29,864 bases of DNA from a virus, in the IMG/VR virus record IMGVR_UViG_3300042288_000192, positions 1 through 29,864 of that record. One strand, 5' to 3'. Made by a program: the position numbers and the translations under genes. Under the pieces are notes generated by a model, which saw only the letters and a list, made by a program, of their open reading frames with translations, was not told the DNA's origin and ran no database searches. The first letter of the stretch is position 1. Every line of letters starts with the position of its first letter. Of this stretch, positions 7,878 through 21,447 are shown in pieces.

Positions 7878-8321
7878 TTACGATGTCGTCGTGGGGTTGT
7901 TCTCCGCCGTGCGGTAGGTCACGGCGAACGTGAGGCGGACGACGCCGAGCGGTTGGTCGCCGCCGTCCACGATATCGATGTCAGTGCTGGTCAGCGTGCA
8001 ATCGCGCGCCGCGCCGCTCAATTGCGATCCGCCAATGGCGGCCTCGACCTCGGCGGCGATATCGTCAAGGGTCTCGTCAACATCGGCCACGGCGCGCGCC
8101 ATGCCCTCAACGATGATGTCGCAGCGGCGGACCAGCTTGGTCGGCACGCCCATGACGATCTCTCGCTCGCTCGTCTCGCCGCGCGCGTAGACCAATAGCG
8201 CGGGCAGCAGATGCGCGGCGATCGGATAGACCCGAGACCGATAGACGCGCGCGCCGGTCGTCGCGAGGCCGGTAAGCGCCGTCACCATCGCATCGCGGAT
8301 TGCCTCGCGCTGGTGCGGCAT
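7878..8321 (-). CDS. Tail terminator / tail completion protein (gpU-like)
   Basis: This 147-aa protein overlaps the upstream head-tail joining gene by one base (TGATG at 8321). It begins MPHQREAIRDAMVTALTGL, then TGARVYRSRVYP, a signature of small tail-completion proteins in which a helix leads into a short beta-sheet. A second strand pair reads LLPALLVYARGE and later PLGVVRLTFAVTYR. In lambda this slot holds gpU, the hexameric ring that ends tail growth and joins the tail to the head. Here it precedes the tube gene, so the same role is likely. Confidence 0.78.
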   Translation of the reverse strand: MPHQREAIRDAMVTALTGLATTGARVYRSRVYPIAAHLLPALLVYARGETSEREIVMGVPTKLVRRCDIIVEGMARAVADVDETLDDIAAEVEAAIGGSQLSGAARDCTLTSTDIDIVDGGDQPLGVVRLTFAVTYRTAENNPTTTS

Positions 8322-8632
8322 CAGGGCTTCTCCAGCAGCAGCGTCGTGACGCCCGTGCCGTCAGCCTGGACGACGCGGATCGTGTAGGTGGTCGAGCCGA
8401 TACGCAGCGCATCGCCTTCGCGCGTGCCTGTCGGCAGATCAGCGGTGGCGACCATAAAGCGCGGCTGCGACACCGCGAACGGGATGCCGCCGCGCGGGTC
8501 AACAGCCTCGTATTCGTCGTCGTAGATCCCGGCGACCTTCGTGCCGACCGTCTGGCCGGCGCGCGTGACGCGAGCGGCAACACCGAAAATATCGATGTCC
8601 ATCAGCGCCGCGATGTCGCCTTGGATGTTCAT
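8321..8632 (-). CDS. Head-tail joining protein (gpFII-like)
   Basis: This 103-aa protein overlaps the methyltransferase/glycosyltransferase gene by ATGA at its start and the tail terminator gene by one base at its end. It fits the lambda FII family: an N-terminal short helix (MNIQGDIAALMDIDIFG), then a beta-barrel with the conserved middle TKVAGIYDDEYEAVDPRGG and a final strand DALRIGSTTYTIRVV. FII-type proteins fill the connector at the base of the capsid and provide the tail docking surface. Its size equals that of the family. Confidence 0.75.
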   Translation of the reverse strand: MNIQGDIAALMDIDIFGVAARVTRAGQTVGTKVAGIYDDEYEAVDPRGGIPFAVSQPRFMVATADLPTGTREGDALRIGSTTYTIRVVQADGTGVTTLLLEKP

Positions 8633-10173
8633 TTCACGGGCTCCAGCTTGCCGATGTGCTCGAGGTAATTCAGCACCAGTTCCGCCACCTTCTCAGGCCG
8701 CGCGAGCGCCTGGCACGCAGCAGCCTTTGTCGTCGTGTCGCGCGCGCAAAACGAATAGTTCGGCGGATGCACGCGGTGGCATGGATAGCACCCGAGCGCC
8801 AGCGGTTCTGCACTCGCGGTGTTGACCCAGTGCTTCGTCAGGTTCTCGACGCTGCTATGCGACAGCGTCACGATTTTCAGCATCGGCTCAAATGCCACCG
8901 CATTGGCGATCAGGCTTTCGGTGGCGACGACAGCGTCGGCCTGTAGCGCGTACGCCAGCGCATGCCTTACGGGCCACTCCATGCCCGCGTAGATGCCGTA
9001 GGGTTCGACGCCCAGCACGCTCTCATCGCGGATGTCGCCGAGCGCCACTGAATAGACTTTGCGCGCGGCCAGAAGCTCCATCAAACGCTGCGTGTAGGGC
9101 CAGTATTTGACCGGCCCGCTGCCCGCAGGATTGATGACGACGACCGGCCCCGGCAGCTCTGCACGGATGCGCTTGGCCCAGGCCTCCTCGGCGGCGCTTG
9201 GATAGTAGCGCTGGCGGAAATTGGATGGCGGCAGATCGGCGTAGGCGTGAACGGTCTCAAGATAGTTTGCGTTCATCAGCCGATGACGAACGGTCTGCGG
9301 CAGAAAGAACTCGTAGCTGGTTTCGTGCGGCAGCAGCCGGTTCTCGACGCTGCCGATCAGGTTGATGAACTTCGTATGCCGCTTGGCCTGATGGCACCAG
9401 AACGCCACCGCTTCCTCGTTCGGGATCACGGTGTCGCTGAAGACCACCAGGTCATCGATGTTCGGGTCGTGTTTCAGCACCGCGCCGCCAGTCGGCCCGA
9501 CATAGCAGGTGACGTGATAGCCCTGCTCCTTGTAGTTCGCGCAGACGCTCGACGCCCAGAGCGCATCGCCGTGCCCGCCTACGCGCACAATGCCGACGCT
9601 CTTCTCGGGCTTCGGCTCGCTGGCCTTGTCCATCTGACCGGCGCTTGGCTTCTCGCGGCGGTAGACCTGGAGGAAGGAATACTCATCGTCCTGGTCGCGC
9701 GTCTCATTGACAAGCAGCGTCCAGTCCGGCGCGATCTCGCGCATGGCCGCGACGATGTCCTCGGGCGCGAAGTCGTGCTTGTGGTCAGGATTGGCACCGG
9801 GCTGCCCGATGCGCGGATACAGGTCGCAGTGCGGCAGGTAGAGCGTCAGGTGCCCGCCAGGTGCGAGAAGACGCCACCATTCGCGCAACGTTGCGCGGTA
9901 GTCCTCAATGTGTTCAAGCGTGTGCGACGAAAACACCGTGTCAAACGACTGGTCCGCGAACATCGCCAGCCTGGACGCATCGCTGATCGCGATGTCCGGC
10001 CGCATGCGGATGCCGAAAAGCTTGGTGTCCGTCAGGTTATCGACGCCGATCAGATGCGGCCAGACCTTGCGCGGCCCGCACCCGATGTCGAGGCCGCGAT
10101 TGCAGTACCGCAGCACCTCATATTTGACCTTGCTCGCCTCGTCGCCGTTGCTTGTTTCCAGACGCCAAACCAT
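8629..10173 (-). CDS. Methyltransferase-glycosyltransferase (GT9-like) fusion
   Basis: A 514-residue two-domain enzyme. Residues about 25-172 are a class I SAM-dependent methyltransferase: motif I LDIGCG at 28-33, the acidic VD at 44-45, FDTVFSSHTLEH at 77-88 and LAPGGHL at 103-109. A charged linker (about 173-191) leads to a GT9/heptosyltransferase-like part (192-505): IVRVGGHGDALWASSV at 195-210, VVINPAGSG at 345-353, then ADAVVATES at 412-420. A Cys cluster follows (462, 465, 476, 487). The start has a strong SD (GGAGGA). The gene begins just past a terminator behind the capsid gene and overlaps the FII-like gene by ATGA. I infer modification of a virion protein or of host LPS. The sugar and substrate are unknown, and GT residues were recognised by pattern only. 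Confidence 0.82.
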   Translation of the reverse strand: MVWRLETSNGDEASKVKYEVLRYCNRGLDIGCGPRKVWPHLIGVDNLTDTKLFGIRMRPDIAISDASRLAMFADQSFDTVFSSHTLEHIEDYRATLREWWRLLAPGGHLTLYLPHCDLYPRIGQPGANPDHKHDFAPEDIVAAMREIAPDWTLLVNETRDQDDEYSFLQVYRREKPSAGQMDKASEPKPEKSVGIVRVGGHGDALWASSVCANYKEQGYHVTCYVGPTGGAVLKHDPNIDDLVVFSDTVIPNEEAVAFWCHQAKRHTKFINLIGSVENRLLPHETSYEFFLPQTVRHRLMNANYLETVHAYADLPPSNFRQRYYPSAAEEAWAKRIRAELPGPVVVINPAGSGPVKYWPYTQRLMELLAARKVYSVALGDIRDESVLGVEPYGIYAGMEWPVRHALAYALQADAVVATESLIANAVAFEPMLKIVTLSHSSVENLTKHWVNTASAEPLALGCYPCHRVHPPNYSFCARDTTTKAAACQALARPEKVAELVLNYLEHIGKLEPVK

Positions 10174-10188
10174 CAGTCCTCCAGGGTT

Positions 10189-10226
10189 GAAGAAAACGCC
10201 GCGCGCCGATCTCTCGACGCGCGGCG
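10189..10226 (-). terminator. Intrinsic terminator after the capsid gene
   Basis: On the minus strand a 9-bp GC stem (arms 10218-10226 and 10197-10205) can be extended by three inner pairs after one mismatch. It is followed by TTTTCTTC (10189-10196). It starts 16 nt past the capsid stop and ends just before the ribosome site of the next gene. It should lower transcription of downstream genes relative to the capsid gene. Confidence 0.8.
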
Positions 10227-10241
10227 CTAGTCATACTTGGA

Positions 10242-12050
10242 TCAGGTCAACTGATCCAGCATCACCGCGAAGGCGCCCGGCTGGCGGACGCCGAAGTCGG
10301 CGAACTGGTTGAGCGTGATCTTCACTTGGCCGGTGTCGGACTTCGTGTAGGGATCGACTACGATGTCCGGCGCGCCGAACAGGCCCAGGACGGCCATCGA
10401 CCAGTCGGACGAGAAGAACGTCGCCGAGCAGACGGTGGTGCTGGTGCCCTTGGTCAGATTCGCCGGGACGTTGTTGGTCACCGCGACCCGGTAGCCGTTG
10501 ACCGGCTGCGCGCCGTTGTCCCAGATGAACGGCAGGTTGGTGCCGCGCTGCACCTGCTTCGCACGACCACGGACCTTGGTGTTGGTCAGGTAGCCGGCGA
10601 GCCGATCCGGTTCGGCGTTGGCGTTCGCCACCGCGCTTTCCAGATCGACGAAGTGCGCCCACGCGACCGTCGCCCCGTTCGCGCCGGCAGTCGCCGTCGA
10701 AATCGAGGTCGTGTTGCGGAGGCCCAGGATGTTCGGCGCGGTGCCGTTGCCGTTGATCGCCTGGTTCTCCAGCAGGATCGCAGCGCCCATGAGCAGGTCG
10801 TCGCGGATCATCGGCTCCAGAGCCATCGAGGACTGGATGATGGCCTGTTTGGAAACCTCGACATACGCGCCGATGCGCTTGGGCGACAGCGACAGCTTGG
10901 CGATGTTGGGGTTGGTCTCAGCCGCCGACCCGATTTCCGTCAGCATGCCGAGCGTCGAGGCGACCGACTTGCGCGGGATGTCGATGTTGGCGGTCAGACC
11001 CGGCAGGATACGCACGCCGAGACCCGCCATCACCATCGCGTTTCGCAGCGCATCGACGTAGAGATCGCCACGCAGATCGGTGGCGACGAGGTTACCCGCC
11101 TCCGTCGAAGTGCCGACGTTGAAGTCGCGGCGGTAGATGTCGAGCGGGATGTAGAAGCCCTCGGGTGCGCGGCCCATGATTTTCGCCACCGCTTCGCTCG
11201 CCTCGCGCTCCAGGCCCGCATCGGACCAGTCGCCGAGAACCGCCGCGCGCAGAGCGCGCCCGAGGCTGTAGCGCCGCGCCTCGGTCTTCGTCATGCCGAC
11301 ATGGGCGGCGGACGTGTCCGTGTGCCGCGTTTCCATCTTCGCCATGATCAGATCGCGGAACTGCTCGACGCTCTTGCCGTTGCGGACGGCATCGGCGGCA
11401 TCACGCGCCCCGAGATACTTGGAGTACTGGTCGCCGAGGTCGAGGATCGACCGCACGCGTGCGGCCTCGAGATCCGCGCCGGCAGGCTGCTGGATGTTGT
11501 CGCTCATAGTCAGGTTCCTTTCGGATTTGGGTTCCGGTGCCACCTTCGGCGGCTCCGGCAATTGCGGCTGCTGTTCGTCAGCGGCACGGCCCACGCCGAC
11601 CGTGGGATCAGCTGGAATCGCGACGAGCGACAACTCGTACGGCTCCCAGTCGGTCACGCGGATTTCGCGCGACCCGCGAACGGGCTGCGCGTCGTGGATC
11701 ATGTAGCCGACCGAGACGTGCCGGCGAATGCCGTCCTGCACGTCCCGAAACGCTTCCTCAGCGAGTTCGGAGCGACCGAAGCGCACGACAGCGCGCCCGA
11801 TCTTGTCCTCGTCAATGGAAGCCCGCTCGATGACGCCGATTAGCCTGGTCGGGTCGTGATCAAGCAGCAGCGCGCCGCCGCCGGCCAGCCTGCCGAGGCG
11901 AACCGATTGCGGCGCGTGGTCTAGTACCTCCATGCCAAAGGAGCGTTCGTAAGGCTCCTCGGAGGAGAATGCGAGAGGCACCGTGCGGGCCTCCAGGTCA
12001 ACAGAAGCGCGCTCAAAAGTGGCAACGCGCGTATGCTTCGTGCCCTTCAT
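10242..12050 (-). CDS. Fused prohead protease - major capsid protein (HK97 fold)
   Basis: A 602-aa fusion. Residues 1-160 are an HK97-type prohead protease with His65 in LLLDHD, Ser113 in RHVSVGYM and an acidic candidate in EPYELSLVAIPADP (about 136-149). A Pro/Glu-rich linker (160-180) leads to a delta-like helical region (190-290) and the capsid shell. The shell starts near YIPLDIYRRDFNVG and runs to the C-terminus with SLSPKRIGAYVEVSKQ. ATG at 12050 overlaps the portal stop (ATGA). Ser-His proteases normally cut between the delta domain and the shell. An internal ATG at 11507 with a good SD could make capsid protein without the protease. Confidence 0.92.
   Translation of the reverse strand: MKGTKHTRVATFERASVDLEARTVPLAFSSEEPYERSFGMEVLDHAPQSVRLGRLAGGGALLLDHDPTRLIGVIERASIDEDKIGRAVVRFGRSELAEEAFRDVQDGIRRHVSVGYMIHDAQPVRGSREIRVTDWEPYELSLVAIPADPTVGVGRAADEQQPQLPEPPKVAPEPKSERNLTMSDNIQQPAGADLEAARVRSILDLGDQYSKYLGARDAADAVRNGKSVEQFRDLIMAKMETRHTDTSAAHVGMTKTEARRYSLGRALRAAVLGDWSDAGLEREASEAVAKIMGRAPEGFYIPLDIYRRDFNVGTSTEAGNLVATDLRGDLYVDALRNAMVMAGLGVRILPGLTANIDIPRKSVASTLGMLTEIGSAAETNPNIAKLSLSPKRIGAYVEVSKQAIIQSSMALEPMIRDDLLMGAAILLENQAINGNGTAPNILGLRNTTSISTATAGANGATVAWAHFVDLESAVANANAEPDRLAGYLTNTKVRGRAKQVQRGTNLPFIWDNGAQPVNGYRVAVTNNVPANLTKGTSTTVCSATFFSSDWSMAVLGLFGAPDIVVDPYTKSDTGQVKITLNQFADFGVRQPGAFAVMLDQLT
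11507..11521 (-). promoter_or_regulatory. Internal ribosome binding site and ATG for the capsid part
   Basis: Inside the protease-capsid gene the minus strand carries AAAGGAA (11515-11521) seven to eight bases before an in-frame ATG at 11507. Translation from there would begin MSDNIQQPAG and give a 421-residue capsid precursor that lacks the protease. The spacing and core match the best SD sites in the window. Confidence 0.65.
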
Positions 12051-13600
12051 GTGCGGGCCTCCTGTCCGTTTTCCATCTCGTCTTCGGCCTCGTCCTCGGG
12101 GCTGTCTTCAGCCTCGACCGGTTGATCGCCCAGCACGACACCCGCAGCGGCGATCTTAGCTTGTTCGTCAGCAAGCTCGGCGAGAATTTCATCAAAATCC
12201 TGGCCCGTCTTCGCGGCGATGCGGCTGCGCGAGGTAAGACCGGCGGCGAGAAGCGCTTTTTCGGCCTCGGCATCCTTGAGCGGATCGACCCACTGCCAGC
12301 GCCGCCCGAGGAACGTGCTGGCATCGGCGAACTTGTTGAAGCGATCCGCAGGAAGGGCGCGGCCTGATGCTGGCAGCCGGACATCACCGCGCACCAGCGC
12401 GGAGGCTAGCCACTCGCGATAGACCGGCATGACGAGGCTGTCGATGAACCAGCCTTGCAGCACCTGCCACTGATCCCGCGTCTCTATGGTGCCAGCGCGC
12501 ATGCTGGAGTAGTTCACCGCCTCCAGGTCGTTCGCGAGCGTCGCATAGTCTATGTCCAGGCCCGCCGCGATGCCGCGCAAGCAGCCCTTCATGAAGCTCT
12601 CGAAATTGGCGTGCGGATAGTCGGGGTTGAAGCTCTCGAAATCGTATCCCGGCGGCAGTTCCCACATCTCGCCTGGCTCGACCTGCGCGGACAGCGACCC
12701 GGCGATGTTCTGATCGGCAAGCTGGCCGGTTGCCTGTCCGGCGTAGCCACCATCCTCGGCGGCACGCTTGAAAAAGCCCATTTTACTCGCGCCGACGCGC
12801 GCGGCGACGACAGCGGCTTCTTCGTAGCTGTGCAGCATGCCCATGCGGATCAGCACTGCGTGCAGCCACGAATAGCCGCGCACCTGTTCGGCGCGCTCCG
12901 GCAGGAACACATGCCAGATCTGATCCGCCGGGATGCGCTCGTAGCCGGGCATCGTCCAGCCCCAGCTTTCACCGGGATGCGAGGTCTTCACATGGTAGGC
13001 GATGGGCCTCGACATGCTGTCGATCTCGACGCCCATGCGGATGTTGAGACCATCCGGCGTGACCTTGTTCAGCGTCTCGTCAAGCCGATCGATCTCGAGC
13101 AGCTGGAGCGCGAAGCCATTCGGCAGATCGCGCCGCCGCACGATGCGGACCAGCGCTTCGCCGTCGCGAGCCACCGCCTTAATGGTCACGCGAAGCAGGT
13201 GCGCGAACGTCATGCGTCCGCCGATGTCGGCGGTCTTCTGCCATTTCCACCACGCCATTTCGATGGCGCTGTTGGCGACGCTGTCGAGGACGCCGCTGTT
13301 GGTCAGCGCCCGGACCTGGAGCGTCGGGCCTTCGGACCCGACAATGTGCGTCGCGGTGAGCGACAGGAAGCGTCGCGCATATTCGTGGTTGTTGCAGAGC
13401 GCCCGCGCACGCGCGCGAAGGATCGCGAGACCGTTTTCGGCGTCGCTGTTCGCCGAACCGCTCCACGTCGCCAGCGATTGCGTCAACCGATTGACCGCAG
13501 CGCCGGCAAAGCCCGCCGATTGCTGCCGCACCATGCGGCGCGGCGCTGCGACGGGCTTTTCGCCCGCGCGAAACCATTTCAGCGGGTTCAGTTCGACCAT
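12047..13600 (-). CDS. Portal protein (lambda gpB family)
   Basis: A 517-residue portal protein, preceded by AAAGGA and coupled to the capsid gene by ATGA. The start MVELNPLKWFRAG is followed by the typical core: AILRARARALCNNHEYARRFL (about 59-79), THIVGSEG, VARDGEALVRIVRRRD (about 143-158), then LLEIDRLDETLN and the GVEIDSMSRPIAYHV segment. GYERIPADQIWHVFLPERAEQ and RGYSWLHAVL also match the lambda portal family. Portal dodecamers are the DNA gate at one capsid vertex and bind terminase. The C-terminal acidic tail (EDEAEDEMENG) is common in this family. Confidence 0.94.
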   Translation of the reverse strand: MVELNPLKWFRAGEKPVAAPRRMVRQQSAGFAGAAVNRLTQSLATWSGSANSDAENGLAILRARARALCNNHEYARRFLSLTATHIVGSEGPTLQVRALTNSGVLDSVANSAIEMAWWKWQKTADIGGRMTFAHLLRVTIKAVARDGEALVRIVRRRDLPNGFALQLLEIDRLDETLNKVTPDGLNIRMGVEIDSMSRPIAYHVKTSHPGESWGWTMPGYERIPADQIWHVFLPERAEQVRGYSWLHAVLIRMGMLHSYEEAAVVAARVGASKMGFFKRAAEDGGYAGQATGQLADQNIAGSLSAQVEPGEMWELPPGYDFESFNPDYPHANFESFMKGCLRGIAAGLDIDYATLANDLEAVNYSSMRAGTIETRDQWQVLQGWFIDSLVMPVYREWLASALVRGDVRLPASGRALPADRFNKFADASTFLGRRWQWVDPLKDAEAEKALLAAGLTSRSRIAAKTGQDFDEILAELADEQAKIAAAGVVLGDQPVEAEDSPEDEAEDEMENGQEART

Positions 13601-14885: not shown

Positions 14886-15848
14886 CTATGCGCTGCGAGC
14901 TATGCGGCCCGCGTCTTTCGATAGCGGCCTACGCGGCGCGCTCTTGCTAAGTCCAATCCGGCCCGTCGATACCGACGCCCCGGTCCTGTTGTCTGCCGGC
15001 GATGTTTCGCCAGCGATGCCTTGCCCCGCTCGGAGCGACGAAACCACGGTGAGCGTGACGCCGTTCACCGTTTCGCCGCCTGTCGCTTCGCCCGCAATGA
15101 TAGACGCTGCGGCTTCAAGCGTTGCGCCGGACGCTGTTGCGCCGCCTTCAGCGGAGCCCGCCAGAAGGCTCGCTGTTGCGCTAAGCGTTGCGCCCGAGGC
15201 CTCGGCATTGCCTGACGCGATACCCGCTACCAGCGACGCGGAAACCGGCAGCACGACGCCATTGGCTTGACTGGCGGCGCTGGCCGCTCCAGCAGTCAGG
15301 CTGGACACGACGGTGAGCGTCGCGCCGTTGGCCTGGCTGGCGGCGCTTGCCGCGCCAGCGATCAGGCTTGCGGTCGCAGAAAGCGTGGCCCCGGTTGCCT
15401 GACTGGATGCCGTAGCAGCTCCAGAGACAAGGCTTGCCGTTGCGGTAAGTGTGACGCCGTTTGCCGTCGTGCCCGCGCTGGCAGTGCCAGCGATCAAGCT
15501 GGACGTGACGGTCAACGTTGCGCCGCTGGCCTGGCTGGCGGCGCTGCCAGATCCAGCGATCAGGCTGGACGTGACAGTGAGCGTGACGCCGTCTGCTGTT
15601 GCGTTGCCCGCCGTTGCGCTGGCCTCGCCAGGCACGAAAACGACCGAGACCGGCAATGCCTCGGCGTGATCGAGCGCCGAACCAAGCAACAGAAGCAGAC
15701 CGCTGTTTGTGCGCGGCAAGCCCGCAGTTGCGTTGACCTGACCAGTCCCCGCGATGAAAGACGCGGTTGCGGTGAACGTGACGCCATTGGCAGTTGCGTT
15801 GGGGTCAACAAATAGCGCCGTGCTGCCAGGAACTCTGACCCGCAGCAT
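14886..15848 (-). CDS. 22-residue tandem-repeat protein, probable virion surface/fiber protein
   Basis: A 320-aa protein dominated by repeats. Residues 85-282 hold nine in-register copies of a 22-residue unit of the form A-x-G-A/V-T-L-T-x-T-A/S-S-L-I-A-G-x-A-x-A. A tenth lies at 20-41, and one or two degenerate copies lie between. The period and alternating hydrophobic pattern suggest stacked beta strands, as in a beta-solenoid or extended fiber. A basic C-terminus (SKSAPRRPLSKDAGRIARSA) follows. There is no signal peptide and no enzyme motif. It sits among virion genes, 1 nt after the lectin-like gene. Copy number could vary by recombination. Confidence 0.7.
   Translation of the reverse strand: MLRVRVPGSTALFVDPNATANGVTFTATASFIAGTGQVNATAGLPRTNSGLLLLLGSALDHAEALPVSVVFVPGEASATAGNATADGVTLTVTSSLIAGSGSAASQASGATLTVTSSLIAGTASAGTTANGVTLTATASLVSGAATASSQATGATLSATASLIAGAASAASQANGATLTVVSSLTAGAASAASQANGVVLPVSASLVAGIASGNAEASGATLSATASLLAGSAEGGATASGATLEAAASIIAGEATGGETVNGVTLTVVSSLRAGQGIAGETSPADNRTGASVSTGRIGLSKSAPRRPLSKDAGRIARSA
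15003..15596 (-). repeat. Nine in-frame 66-bp tandem repeats
   Basis: The DNA encoding residues 85-282 of the repeat protein is nine units of exactly 66 bp, similar but not identical, with no frame disruption. The units most alike are in the middle, where codon spelling is also similar, which suggests recent duplication. This is a coding repeat, not a CRISPR array, because there are no unique spacers. Confidence 0.85.
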
Positions 15849-19530: not shown

Positions 19531-21447
19531 TCAGCCTCTCCATCCGCCGCCCATCCAGCCCCCGCGCATCGGTCGCACAAAGGCCGGTCGCGGCGCAGGT
19601 CTTGGTGGCGCTGGCGGCGCATGTTCCGCCGCCGGTTGCTCGATGCGCGCCGCCTCCACAGCAGGAGGCGCGGCGCGCTTGAATGTCGCACTGGCCGAGG
19701 CCAGCCGCGACCAGTTCACTGCCAGCGCTTGCAGCGCCGCGTAGGCATAGACACGGCAGTCCAGCGCCTCGTTGCGCGCGCCTGGCCGTTTGGTCCAGAC
19801 GCGGACCGGAAAGCCCTTGGTGTAGCGTGTGCTGATCGTCTCGGCGGTCAGCTGCGCGAAGTAGTCAGGCTCGCGGTCCGCCGGGAAATGGCAGAACCCC
19901 GCGCCTGGCCGCGTGATCTTGAGCCGCGCGTAGACCGCTTCCTTGGCCGCATCGACGCCGACCAGGAATAGATTGACCCGGCCCGAGTTGTTCTTGCTCG
20001 CCTTCTTCGGCCACACCGGACGCCCCGCGCCCGCCATGCCCTTGATAGCATAAACGCGCCGCCGGTAGCGGTCGCGGCAGTAGGCGTAAACGGCCTGGGT
20101 GTGATGCCCGCCGCTGTCCACCGCAGCAGCCGCAATGCTCAGTTCCGCGCCGTCCTCGCGCCGCAGCGGTGTCGTCAGCATGCGGTCCAAATCCGCCCAG
20201 AGCGCTGGTGCGGACGGATCGCCGTGGATGACGTGCCACCCGAGCGACCAGCTTTCCTCGTCCCGCCCCCAGCCGACGATCTCGACCTCGAGGCGGTTGT
20301 CTTGAACGTCCACGCCGGCTGTCAGCACCAGGACATCGGCTGGCGCGTCCGACCATTCCTCGCGGCGCTCCATGAGGCCGGTGTCGTCGAGCCGCTCGCC
20401 GGCATCTTCCCAGGTCTCGCCGAGGCTGGTGTTCGTCCAAGCCTTGAGCGTCTCGGGCGATTTCTTGGCCTCAAGAAAAGCCCGCGCAATGTCGCCGATG
20501 CGCGACCAGGGCGAATACAGTTCGCTCAGATGAAAGCCCGCAACGCCGTTTGTTGGCACCTCGGCGCGCCATTCTCCGCGCCGGATAGCGTGCCAGCGCT
20601 CGACATCCGACCATTCACAGCCGCAAGCAACGCAATGGATAGCCGCGCGCTCCGGTTCGTTTGGCGGCCAGCGAACAGACGACCACCGCAGCACCTGATG
20701 CTCGCCGCAATGCGGGCATGGCACCCAATATCGGCGCTGATCCGACGCCTCAAACGCCATTTCGATGCGCGAACCGCCCTTAACGGTCGGCGTCGAGGTC
20801 AGAACCAGCTTTCGGTTCCAGAATGTTGCCGATCGCTTGCGCGCCAGCGTCACCGGGTCGCCTTCGGTGCCCGCCGACGCCGGATATCGGTCCACCTCGT
20901 CGCACAAAACCACCCGAATAGGCCTCGATGCCAGCGACGCGGGGCTGTTTGCGCCGCAGATCGTCAGATGTCCGCCCGGAAATGCCTTATGAAGCAACGT
21001 GTTGCCGCTATCGCGGCTTCGCGCGTCCTTGATCTTGCCCCGCAGTGCCGGCGTGTCGCGCAACATCGGCGCAAGACGGTCCTTTGACCACGCCTCGCCA
21101 AGCTCAAGCGTCGGCATCAGCACCAGAACCGGCGCTGGATCCTGCGCGACGTGGAAGCCTATGACATTGTTCACGATTTCGGTCTTGCCGACTTGTGCCG
21201 ACGACATGACCACGACGGTGTCGATGCGCGGATCGCTGATCGCATCCATGATCCCGCGCTGGTATTCGGCGCGGGACGTGATCCATACGCCGGGTTCGGC
21301 GCTAGCCTCGGGGCTCAGACGCCGGTACTGGTCGGCCCATTCACTGACGGTCAGTCGCGGCGGTGCTTTCAGCGCCGCTCGGCGTATCGTTCGCAGTCGC
21401 AGCCTCAATGCCTGCCGCGATTTCTCCTGCGTCTCGGGCGAGTTCAT
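19531..21447 (-). CDS. terL: Terminase large subunit (lambda gpA-like)
   Basis: A 638-aa DNA-packaging motor. The ATPase part has Walker A SSAQVGKT (residues 82-89), Walker B VVLCDEVDRY (179-188) and the coupling segment LTSTPTVKGGSRIE (216-229). A zinc-finger-like pair, CPHCG at 244-248 and CVACGC at 272-277, lies between ATPase and nuclease. The nuclease has TAGVDVQDNRLE (376-387), AVDSGGHHT and a late EALDCRVYAYAAL. The last ~60 residues are Pro/Ala/Arg-rich. ATG at 21447 has an AGAGG site 7 nt away. The start lies 107 nt inside the end of the small-subunit gene. Confidence 0.96.
   Translation of the reverse strand: MNSPETQEKSRQALRLRLRTIRRAALKAPPRLTVSEWADQYRRLSPEASAEPGVWITSRAEYQRGIMDAISDPRIDTVVVMSSAQVGKTEIVNNVIGFHVAQDPAPVLVLMPTLELGEAWSKDRLAPMLRDTPALRGKIKDARSRDSGNTLLHKAFPGGHLTICGANSPASLASRPIRVVLCDEVDRYPASAGTEGDPVTLARKRSATFWNRKLVLTSTPTVKGGSRIEMAFEASDQRRYWVPCPHCGEHQVLRWSSVRWPPNEPERAAIHCVACGCEWSDVERWHAIRRGEWRAEVPTNGVAGFHLSELYSPWSRIGDIARAFLEAKKSPETLKAWTNTSLGETWEDAGERLDDTGLMERREEWSDAPADVLVLTAGVDVQDNRLEVEIVGWGRDEESWSLGWHVIHGDPSAPALWADLDRMLTTPLRREDGAELSIAAAAVDSGGHHTQAVYAYCRDRYRRRVYAIKGMAGAGRPVWPKKASKNNSGRVNLFLVGVDAAKEAVYARLKITRPGAGFCHFPADREPDYFAQLTAETISTRYTKGFPVRVWTKRPGARNEALDCRVYAYAALQALAVNWSRLASASATFKRAAPPAVEAARIEQPAAEHAPPAPPRPAPRPAFVRPMRGGWMGGGWRG

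What the first reader, a model, noticed from the sequence alone, without database searches (positions are those of the whole stretch)
8629..10173. Methyltransferase-GT9 fusion embedded in the head/tail operon
A single 514-aa gene joins a SAM methyltransferase (LDIGCG, HTLEH motifs) to a heptosyltransferase-like glycosyltransferase with a Cys cluster. It lies between the major capsid gene and the head-tail joining gene, coupled to the latter by ATGA. This position argues for a role during assembly, such as glycosylation or methylation of capsid or tail proteins, or a late change of host LPS that blocks reinfection and re-adsorption. I know of LPS-modifying enzymes in phages, but not of this fusion as a member of the morphogenesis operon.
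Basis: partly seen in the sequence, partly recalled or inferred. Interest (0 to 1): 0.8.

Follow-up and report, generated by a model that had tools for sequence, protein, structure and literature searches.

The report
Phage head-operon methyltransferase–glycosyltransferase fusion
Hundreds of uncultured bacterial viruses from two unrelated head-gene lineages carry, just after the gene for their shell protein, one gene that fuses a methyl-adding enzyme to a sugar-adding enzyme of the heptosyltransferase family, which suggests that they build a methylated sugar coat on the virus particle (or, less likely, on the host surface).

Summary
The gene is real, but it lies on the minus strand (10173→8629). 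Its 514-aa product joins a class I SAM methyltransferase (residues ~1-175) to a GT-B glycosyltransferase (~192-506). Pfam misses GT9 in the window protein, but 29 of 55 relatives hit it, and the AlphaFold model (pLDDT 93) retrieves GT9 enzymes as top hits for that half (3TOV, WaaF, WaaC, TibC). The residues expected for catalysis are invariant and dN/dS is ~0.06.

It is not a recent insertion. The same fusion occurs in more than 200 IMG/VR contigs and in proteobacterial prophages, but in none of 50,697 phage records. Of 89 relatives with upstream sequence, 87 have the major capsid gene upstream, in two unrelated head modules. The fusion tree splits cleanly by head type.

Between capsid and head-closure genes, relatives also hold TylF-type O-methyltransferases (at least 11 gains or losses on the tree), a GT2, or an unrelated MptE-like/FkbM set. 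I read this as a slot for glycan-building enzymes.

Best explanation: modification of a virion protein, most likely capsid, with a methylated sugar (~0.5). Host LPS modification is the main rival (~0.3). Acceptor, donor and activity are untested. The Cys cluster is a GT9 trait and does not show a protein acceptor.

The parts
8629..10173 (-). Methyltransferase-GT9 fusion gene, 514 aa
9649..10173 (-). N-terminal class I SAM methyltransferase domain, residues ~1-175 (D29/G31/G33, D45, H84-E87-H88, invariant D130-H131-H133-D134)
   Evidence: Methyltransf_11 E 2e-12; invariant columns; model
8656..9600 (-). C-terminal GT-B / GT9 domain, residues ~192-506 (G202-D203, K356, E419, H439-S440, Cys cluster 462/465/476/487)
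   Evidence: Foldseek PDB hits 3TOV, 1PSW, WaaC, TibC; PF01075 in 29/55 relatives
10174..10241 (-). Capsid-to-fusion spacer with a strong terminator-like hairpin (stem of about 15 pairs incl. G-U, GAGA loop, T-rich tail) and a GGAGG-type ribosome-binding site
   Evidence: sequence; z-score -4.84, 0 of 200 shuffles as stable; hairpins of unrelated sequence in the same spacer of many relatives
10242..12050 (-). Major capsid protein gene (602 aa; HK97-type, long N-terminal region)
8321..8632 (-). Head-tail joining protein FII / head closure Hc1, start overlaps the fusion's stop as ATGA
12047..13600 (-). Portal protein (lambda family)
   Evidence: PF05136 E 3e-94

Best explanation
The gene encodes a two-domain enzyme made late in infection that adds a sugar to a virion protein, most likely the major capsid protein whose gene precedes it, with its GT9 domain, and methylates that sugar (or its acceptor) with its methyltransferase domain. 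Shown by computation: the two domains and their intact active-site residues, purifying selection, and conserved linkage to the capsid gene in two unrelated head modules. Inferred: enzymatic activity, late expression, a heptose or hexose nucleotide-sugar donor taken from the host, a virion-protein acceptor, and sugar O-methylation. Relatives carry extra O-methyltransferases or glycosyltransferases beside it, which would extend or vary the glycan. Likely purposes (inferred) are particle stability, avoiding binding to debris, or evading recognition.
For: (1) Fold and family: AlphaFold model pLDDT 93, pTM 0.89; Foldseek returns GT9 enzymes for the C-terminal half and SAM methyltransferases for the N-terminal half. 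(2) Invariant residues in 55 relatives match the GT9 catalytic Asp (D203 in GD), the sugar/phosphate-binding Lys (K356) and the SAM motifs. (3) dN/dS about 0.06 for both halves against the 93% relatives. (4) Position: of 89 relatives with upstream sequence, 73 have the type A capsid gene upstream (59 within 320 nt), 14 the unrelated type B capsid gene; 1 has the capsid gene downstream and 1 none found. In a second sample, 68 of 68 with a detectable capsid gene have it upstream. (5) The fusion tree splits by head type with one change (100% SH-aLRT), and fusion distances track capsid distances (Mantel r 0.78; partial r given portal 0.46, versus 0.02 for portal given capsid). (6) The same slot holds TylF O-methyltransferases beside the fusion in both lineages (at least 11 changes on the tree), a GT2 (L088), and, in phages with a related capsid but no fusion, an MptE-like gene, an unassigned 197-aa gene and an FkbM methyltransferase (L228, L229). 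(7) Precedent: capsid glycans in mycobacteriophages Che8 and Rita (PMC11256854; PMC12619734).
Against: No acceptor or donor is shown. Related capsids at 36-50% identity do without the gene (48 of 71 informative loci), so it is not needed for head assembly as such. No fusion-specific capsid domain was found, only five lineage-confounded columns and a 5-column insertion. The GT half aligns best with WaaF-like LPS heptosyltransferases, not with the protein-modifying TibC-like branch. Linkage to capsid could reflect late expression alone.
Confidence: 0.5

Rival explanations
1. The enzyme modifies host LPS or another surface glycan late in infection (adds and methylates a terminal sugar), so that released progeny do not bind debris or already infected cells.
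For: The GT half aligns over its full length with host WaaF-like heptosyltransferases (hhalign probability 96%, 305 columns) but not with a TibC-like one; GT9 enzymes are classically LPS heptosyltransferases; where hosts are named they are almost all proteobacteria; LPS-modifying phage genes are well known (e.g. epsilon15, cited in PMC5537653).
Against: The place after the capsid gene is kept in two unrelated head modules and the fusion co-varies with the capsid. No sigma-70-like promoter was found in the region, so expression in a lysogen for serotype conversion looks unlikely. No membrane-spanning segment (highest 19-residue hydropathy 1.3), although WaaC and WaaF are also peripheral.
Confidence: 0.3
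2. The two domains do separate jobs: the methyltransferase methylates a residue of capsid or another late protein, and the GT9 domain glycosylates something else, or one of the two is now structural.
For: Methyltransf_11 is a broad family without a fixed acceptor.
Against: Both halves are under the same purifying selection and the full-length relatives found keep both halves; the extra neighbours are TylF (sugar O-methyltransferase family) and GT2, which points to a shared glycan.
Confidence: 0.1
3. Phage DNA hypermodification by a methyltransferase-glycosyltransferase pair.
For: Virus-encoded glycosyltransferases that hypermodify DNA are known (Pyle et al. 2024, cited in PMC12619734).
Against: GT9 is not among the DNA glycosyltransferase families known to me; no nucleotide-precursor enzyme was recognised next to the gene; a head-operon place is unusual for base modification (own knowledge).
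Confidence: 0.04
4. A neutral or selfish cargo gene that merely sits in a permissive late-operon slot.
For: Capsid relatives without the gene often have the slot nearly empty, and the slot's other content varies.
Against: dN/dS about 0.06, deep co-inheritance with head type, and invariant active-site residues in 55 diverse relatives.
Confidence: 0.06

Closest known systems
GT9 heptosyltransferases (WaaF 1PSW, WaaC 2H1H/6DFE, 3TOV)
   Same: GT-B fold, GD motif with catalytic Asp, K-x-W-P Lys; the C-terminal Cys cluster lies at the same place as in many host GT9 enzymes
   Different: Fused to an N-terminal methyltransferase; the D-[TS]-G-x-x-H motif of host enzymes is replaced by E-[ST]-x3-N or similar; encoded in a phage head operon
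TibC/AAH bacterial autotransporter heptosyltransferases (BAHT)
   Same: GT9-type core and four Cys in C-x2-C...C...C; Lys to first Cys 106 residues versus 109 in TibC (PMC4358343)
   Different: Cys spacing differs (x10/x10 versus x15/x11), a methyltransferase takes the place of the N-terminal beta-barrel, and a TibC-like host protein does not align while WaaF-like ones do
Virion glycosylation of mycobacteriophages Che8 and Rita (Freeman et al. 2023, cited in PMC11256854)
   Same: Phage-encoded glycosyltransferases; a possible glycan shield on the capsid
   Different: Mycobacterial hosts, other glycosyltransferase families (own knowledge), no methyltransferase-GT9 fusion; in Maravista the genes lie near the 3' end of the genome, not beside the capsid gene
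TylF / FkbM O-methyltransferases
   Same: Occur in the same slot and may act on the same glycan
   Different: Separate genes, of other families than the fused Methyltransf_11 domain

Membership tests
GT9 glycosyltransferase (PF01075) | Profile match above the curated cut-off | tested here: inconclusive
   Window protein: no hit. 29 of 55 relatives hit at E<=0.1, best 6e-7; L059 27.6 bits against a cut-off of 22.
GT9 glycosyltransferase (PF01075) | GT-B fold most similar to solved GT9 structures | tested here: met
   Foldseek: 3TOV E 2e-11, 1PSW E 4e-11, WaaC, TibC
GT9 glycosyltransferase (PF01075) | Catalytic Asp in the N-lobe GD motif and donor-binding Lys in the C-lobe | tested here: met
   D203 and K356 invariant in 55 relatives
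GT9 glycosyltransferase (PF01075) | Heptose (or other sugar) transfer activity | not testable with these tools
   needs biochemistry
Class I SAM methyltransferase (Methyltransf_11) | Profile match and SAM-binding motifs | tested here: met
   PF08241 47.9 bits against a cut-off of 21.2; D29/G31/G33 and D45 invariant
BAHT (TibC) protein heptosyltransferase | Four-Cys metal finger after the catalytic core | tested here: inconclusive
   Four invariant Cys at the same place, but the spacing differs and ordinary host GT9 enzymes have a similar cluster
BAHT (TibC) protein heptosyltransferase | N-terminal beta-barrel fused to the catalytic domain | tested here: not met
   The N-terminal half is a methyltransferase
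Phage virion glycosylation system | Glycan present on a virion protein and dependent on the gene | not testable with these tools
   needs mass spectrometry of particles
Phage virion glycosylation system | Enzyme encoded with structural genes and co-inherited with them (supporting, not defining on its own) | tested here: met

The most novel reading that the evidence does not exclude
A widespread, previously undescribed virion-glycan system of phages of Gram-negative bacteria: a methyltransferase-GT9 fusion, fixed beside the capsid gene in two unrelated head lineages, builds a methylated sugar on the capsid, and exchangeable neighbours (TylF, GT2, FkbM, MptE-like) diversify it.
Probability: 0.42. 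Interest if true: 0.78.

Novelty: new variant of a known kind. Interest (0 to 1): 0.62.

Why it matters
Glycosylated phage particles are known in few cases, mostly in mycobacteriophages. If the role is right, hundreds of uncultured phages of Gram-negative bacteria carry a fixed sugar- and methyl-adding enzyme beside their capsid gene, and the variable slot gives natural variants for asking what particle glycans do. Prophages in named isolates (Paraburkholderia, Aromatoleum) make it testable. If the target is LPS instead, it would be a late, capsid-linked way of altering the host surface, also unusual.

Tried and rejected
- GT half against Pfam, NCBIfam, PHROGs and phage records: no hit alone.
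- Cys cluster as proof of a TibC-like protein glycosyltransferase: rejected, since host WaaF-like GT9 enzymes have a similar cluster and the TibC-like host protein L149 does not align with our profile while WaaF-like ones do.
- Search for a capsid domain or conserved acceptor residue specific to fusion-bearing phages: only five columns (Y396, Q402, S537, D549, Y568) and a 5-column insertion, confounded with lineage; inconclusive.
- 'Recent insertion': rejected by distribution, selection and tree.
- Papers on this fusion beside capsid genes: none found in the open library; the Freeman et al. 2023 paper itself is not held.
- The consensus terminator scan did not list the hairpin after the capsid gene; folding shows it, probably because the stem absorbs part of the T run.

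Full report
What is there. The 514-codon gene lies on the minus strand at 10173-8629, in a minus-strand head/tail operon: terminase 19531-21447, portal 12047-13600, major capsid 10242-12050, this gene, FII/Hc1 joining protein 8321-8632, then tail genes. Its stop overlaps the next start as ATGA. The window is an IMG/VR-type virus record of 29,864 bases.

Domains. The N-terminal half is a class I SAM methyltransferase (Methyltransf_11 E 2e-12). The C-terminal half has no Pfam hit in the window protein, but 29 of 55 aligned relatives hit Glyco_transf_9 at E<=0.1, L059 above the curated cut-off. A profile search of PDB sequences gives weak GT9 hits, 3TOV and WaaF. The AlphaFold model is confident (pLDDT 93, pTM 0.89), and Foldseek gives GT9 enzymes 3TOV, WaaF, WaaC and TibC as best hits for that half. 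D203 (GD motif) and K356 match the catalytic Asp and donor-binding Lys of GT9 and are invariant, as are four Cys. Where host GT9 enzymes have D-[TS]-G-x-x-H, this family has E-[ST]-x3-N or similar (sequence comparison). Both halves are under strong purifying selection (dN/dS about 0.06 against the 93% relatives).

The Cys cluster. TibC, a protein heptosyltransferase, binds iron with Cys339/342/358/370 (PMC4358343). Our C462/465/476/487 lie at nearly the same distance from the Lys (106 versus 109 residues). But host WaaF-like GT9 enzymes have C-x2-C-x4-C-x6-C at the same place, and our profile aligns over its full length with those (probability 96%) and not with the TibC-like host protein L149. 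The cluster is therefore a GT9 trait, not evidence for a protein acceptor.

Distribution. 223 IMG/VR stretches encode relatives of the window protein, of which the best 80 were fetched. A search with the distant relative L095 matched 205 stretches and fetched a further, mostly different, set of 80. Full-length copies lie in prophages or MAG contigs of Burkholderiales and other proteobacteria. None of 50,697 phage records holds the fusion at that sensitivity; only the methyltransferase part matches, mostly in cyanophages.

Position. Among 89 relatives with upstream sequence, 87 have a major capsid gene upstream: 73 of the window's type (A; 59 within 320 nt) and 14 of a different type (B; phrog_1357 capsid, SU10-type portal PF23899, phrog_578 Hc3 downstream). 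One locus has the capsid gene downstream and one has only a portal upstream. In the second sample all 68 loci with a detectable capsid gene have it upstream. 'Unrelated' here means that portal, capsid and closure proteins are not matched across the two types by tblastn; both capsids probably share the HK97 fold (a weak PF05065 match in type B). The counts include near-copies and are not independent. The fusion tree separates A and B by a single branch (SH-aLRT 100), so the simplest history is one crossing between head modules, with the enzyme staying with each since. In type A, fusion distances follow capsid distances (Mantel r 0.78); adjacency alone could give part of this.

The slot. Capsid relatives at 36-50% identity often lack the fusion: 48 lack it, 23 have it, 9 end at the contig edge. 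In the phage isolates with related capsids that were read, the slot holds only small genes. But in several relatives the same slot holds other enzymes. TylF O-methyltransferases lie beside the fusion in both head lineages (PF05711 E 1e-14 to 1e-19), with at least 11 gains or losses on the tree. L088 has a GT2. L228 and L229, without the fusion, have an MptE-like protein (by similarity to L222, weak PF01973), an unassigned 197-aa protein that I read as GT-A-like by eye, and an FkbM methyltransferase. An unassigned ~205-aa family (VETGTxxGD) is also frequent. Recurrent pairing of glycosyl- and methyltransferases in one slot is the best evidence that they build one methylated glycan.

Expression. 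A very stable hairpin with a T-rich tail lies between capsid and fusion (z -4.8), and hairpins of unrelated sequence sit in the same spacer of many relatives. No sigma-70-like promoter was found in 8300-10500. I infer a partial terminator after the capsid gene, as after T7 gene 10 (own knowledge), which would give enzyme-level rather than capsid-level expression.

Function. Shown: the domains, intact active sites, selection, linkage. Inferred: a late enzyme that adds and methylates a sugar on a virion protein, most likely capsid (0.5). The main rival is late modification of host LPS (0.3), supported by the WaaF-like sequence affinity. Precedent for capsid glycans comes from mycobacteriophages (PMC11256854; PMC12619734). 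The decisive test is mass spectrometry of particles with and without the gene.

Noticed in passing
window 10174-10241 (-): Terminator-like hairpin directly after the capsid gene, with non-homologous hairpins at the same place in many relatives; possibly a partial terminator that lowers expression downstream of capsid.
   Followed up: partly
L066:7563-8189; L043, L044, L047, L057, L060, L061, L063, L065, L067, L069, L072, L075, L080: A ~205-aa family (MGTL..F....VETGTxxGD...FWLDAHFPGA) with no Pfam hit recurs beside the fusion, on either side of it; it looks like a class I methyltransferase by eye.
   Followed up: partly
L228:1777-3758, L229:2807-4785: In phages with a related capsid but no fusion, the slot between capsid and Hc1 holds an MptE-like gene, an unassigned 197-aa gene (GT-A-like by eye) and an FkbM methyltransferase.
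   Followed up: partly
L222:2846-5737; L236 (Roseobacter phage CRP-831): Very long capsid proteins (963 and ~974 aa); in L222 the N-terminal part carries Peptidase_S78 and Hva1_TUDOR matches, i.e. protease and capsid in one chain.
   Followed up: no
window 14886-15848 (-): A 320-aa protein made largely of repeats of the type 'ASGATLSATASLIAG'; structural role unknown.
   Followed up: no
L149 (genome of Paraburkholderia sp. C35): A host GT9-like protein with C-x2-C-x15-C-x11-C, exactly the TibC spacing; probably a TibC-type enzyme.
   Followed up: no
L096: A type A capsid and fusion on a short contig binned as Conexibacter (an actinobacterium), more likely mis-binned than a Gram-positive host.
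   Followed up: no
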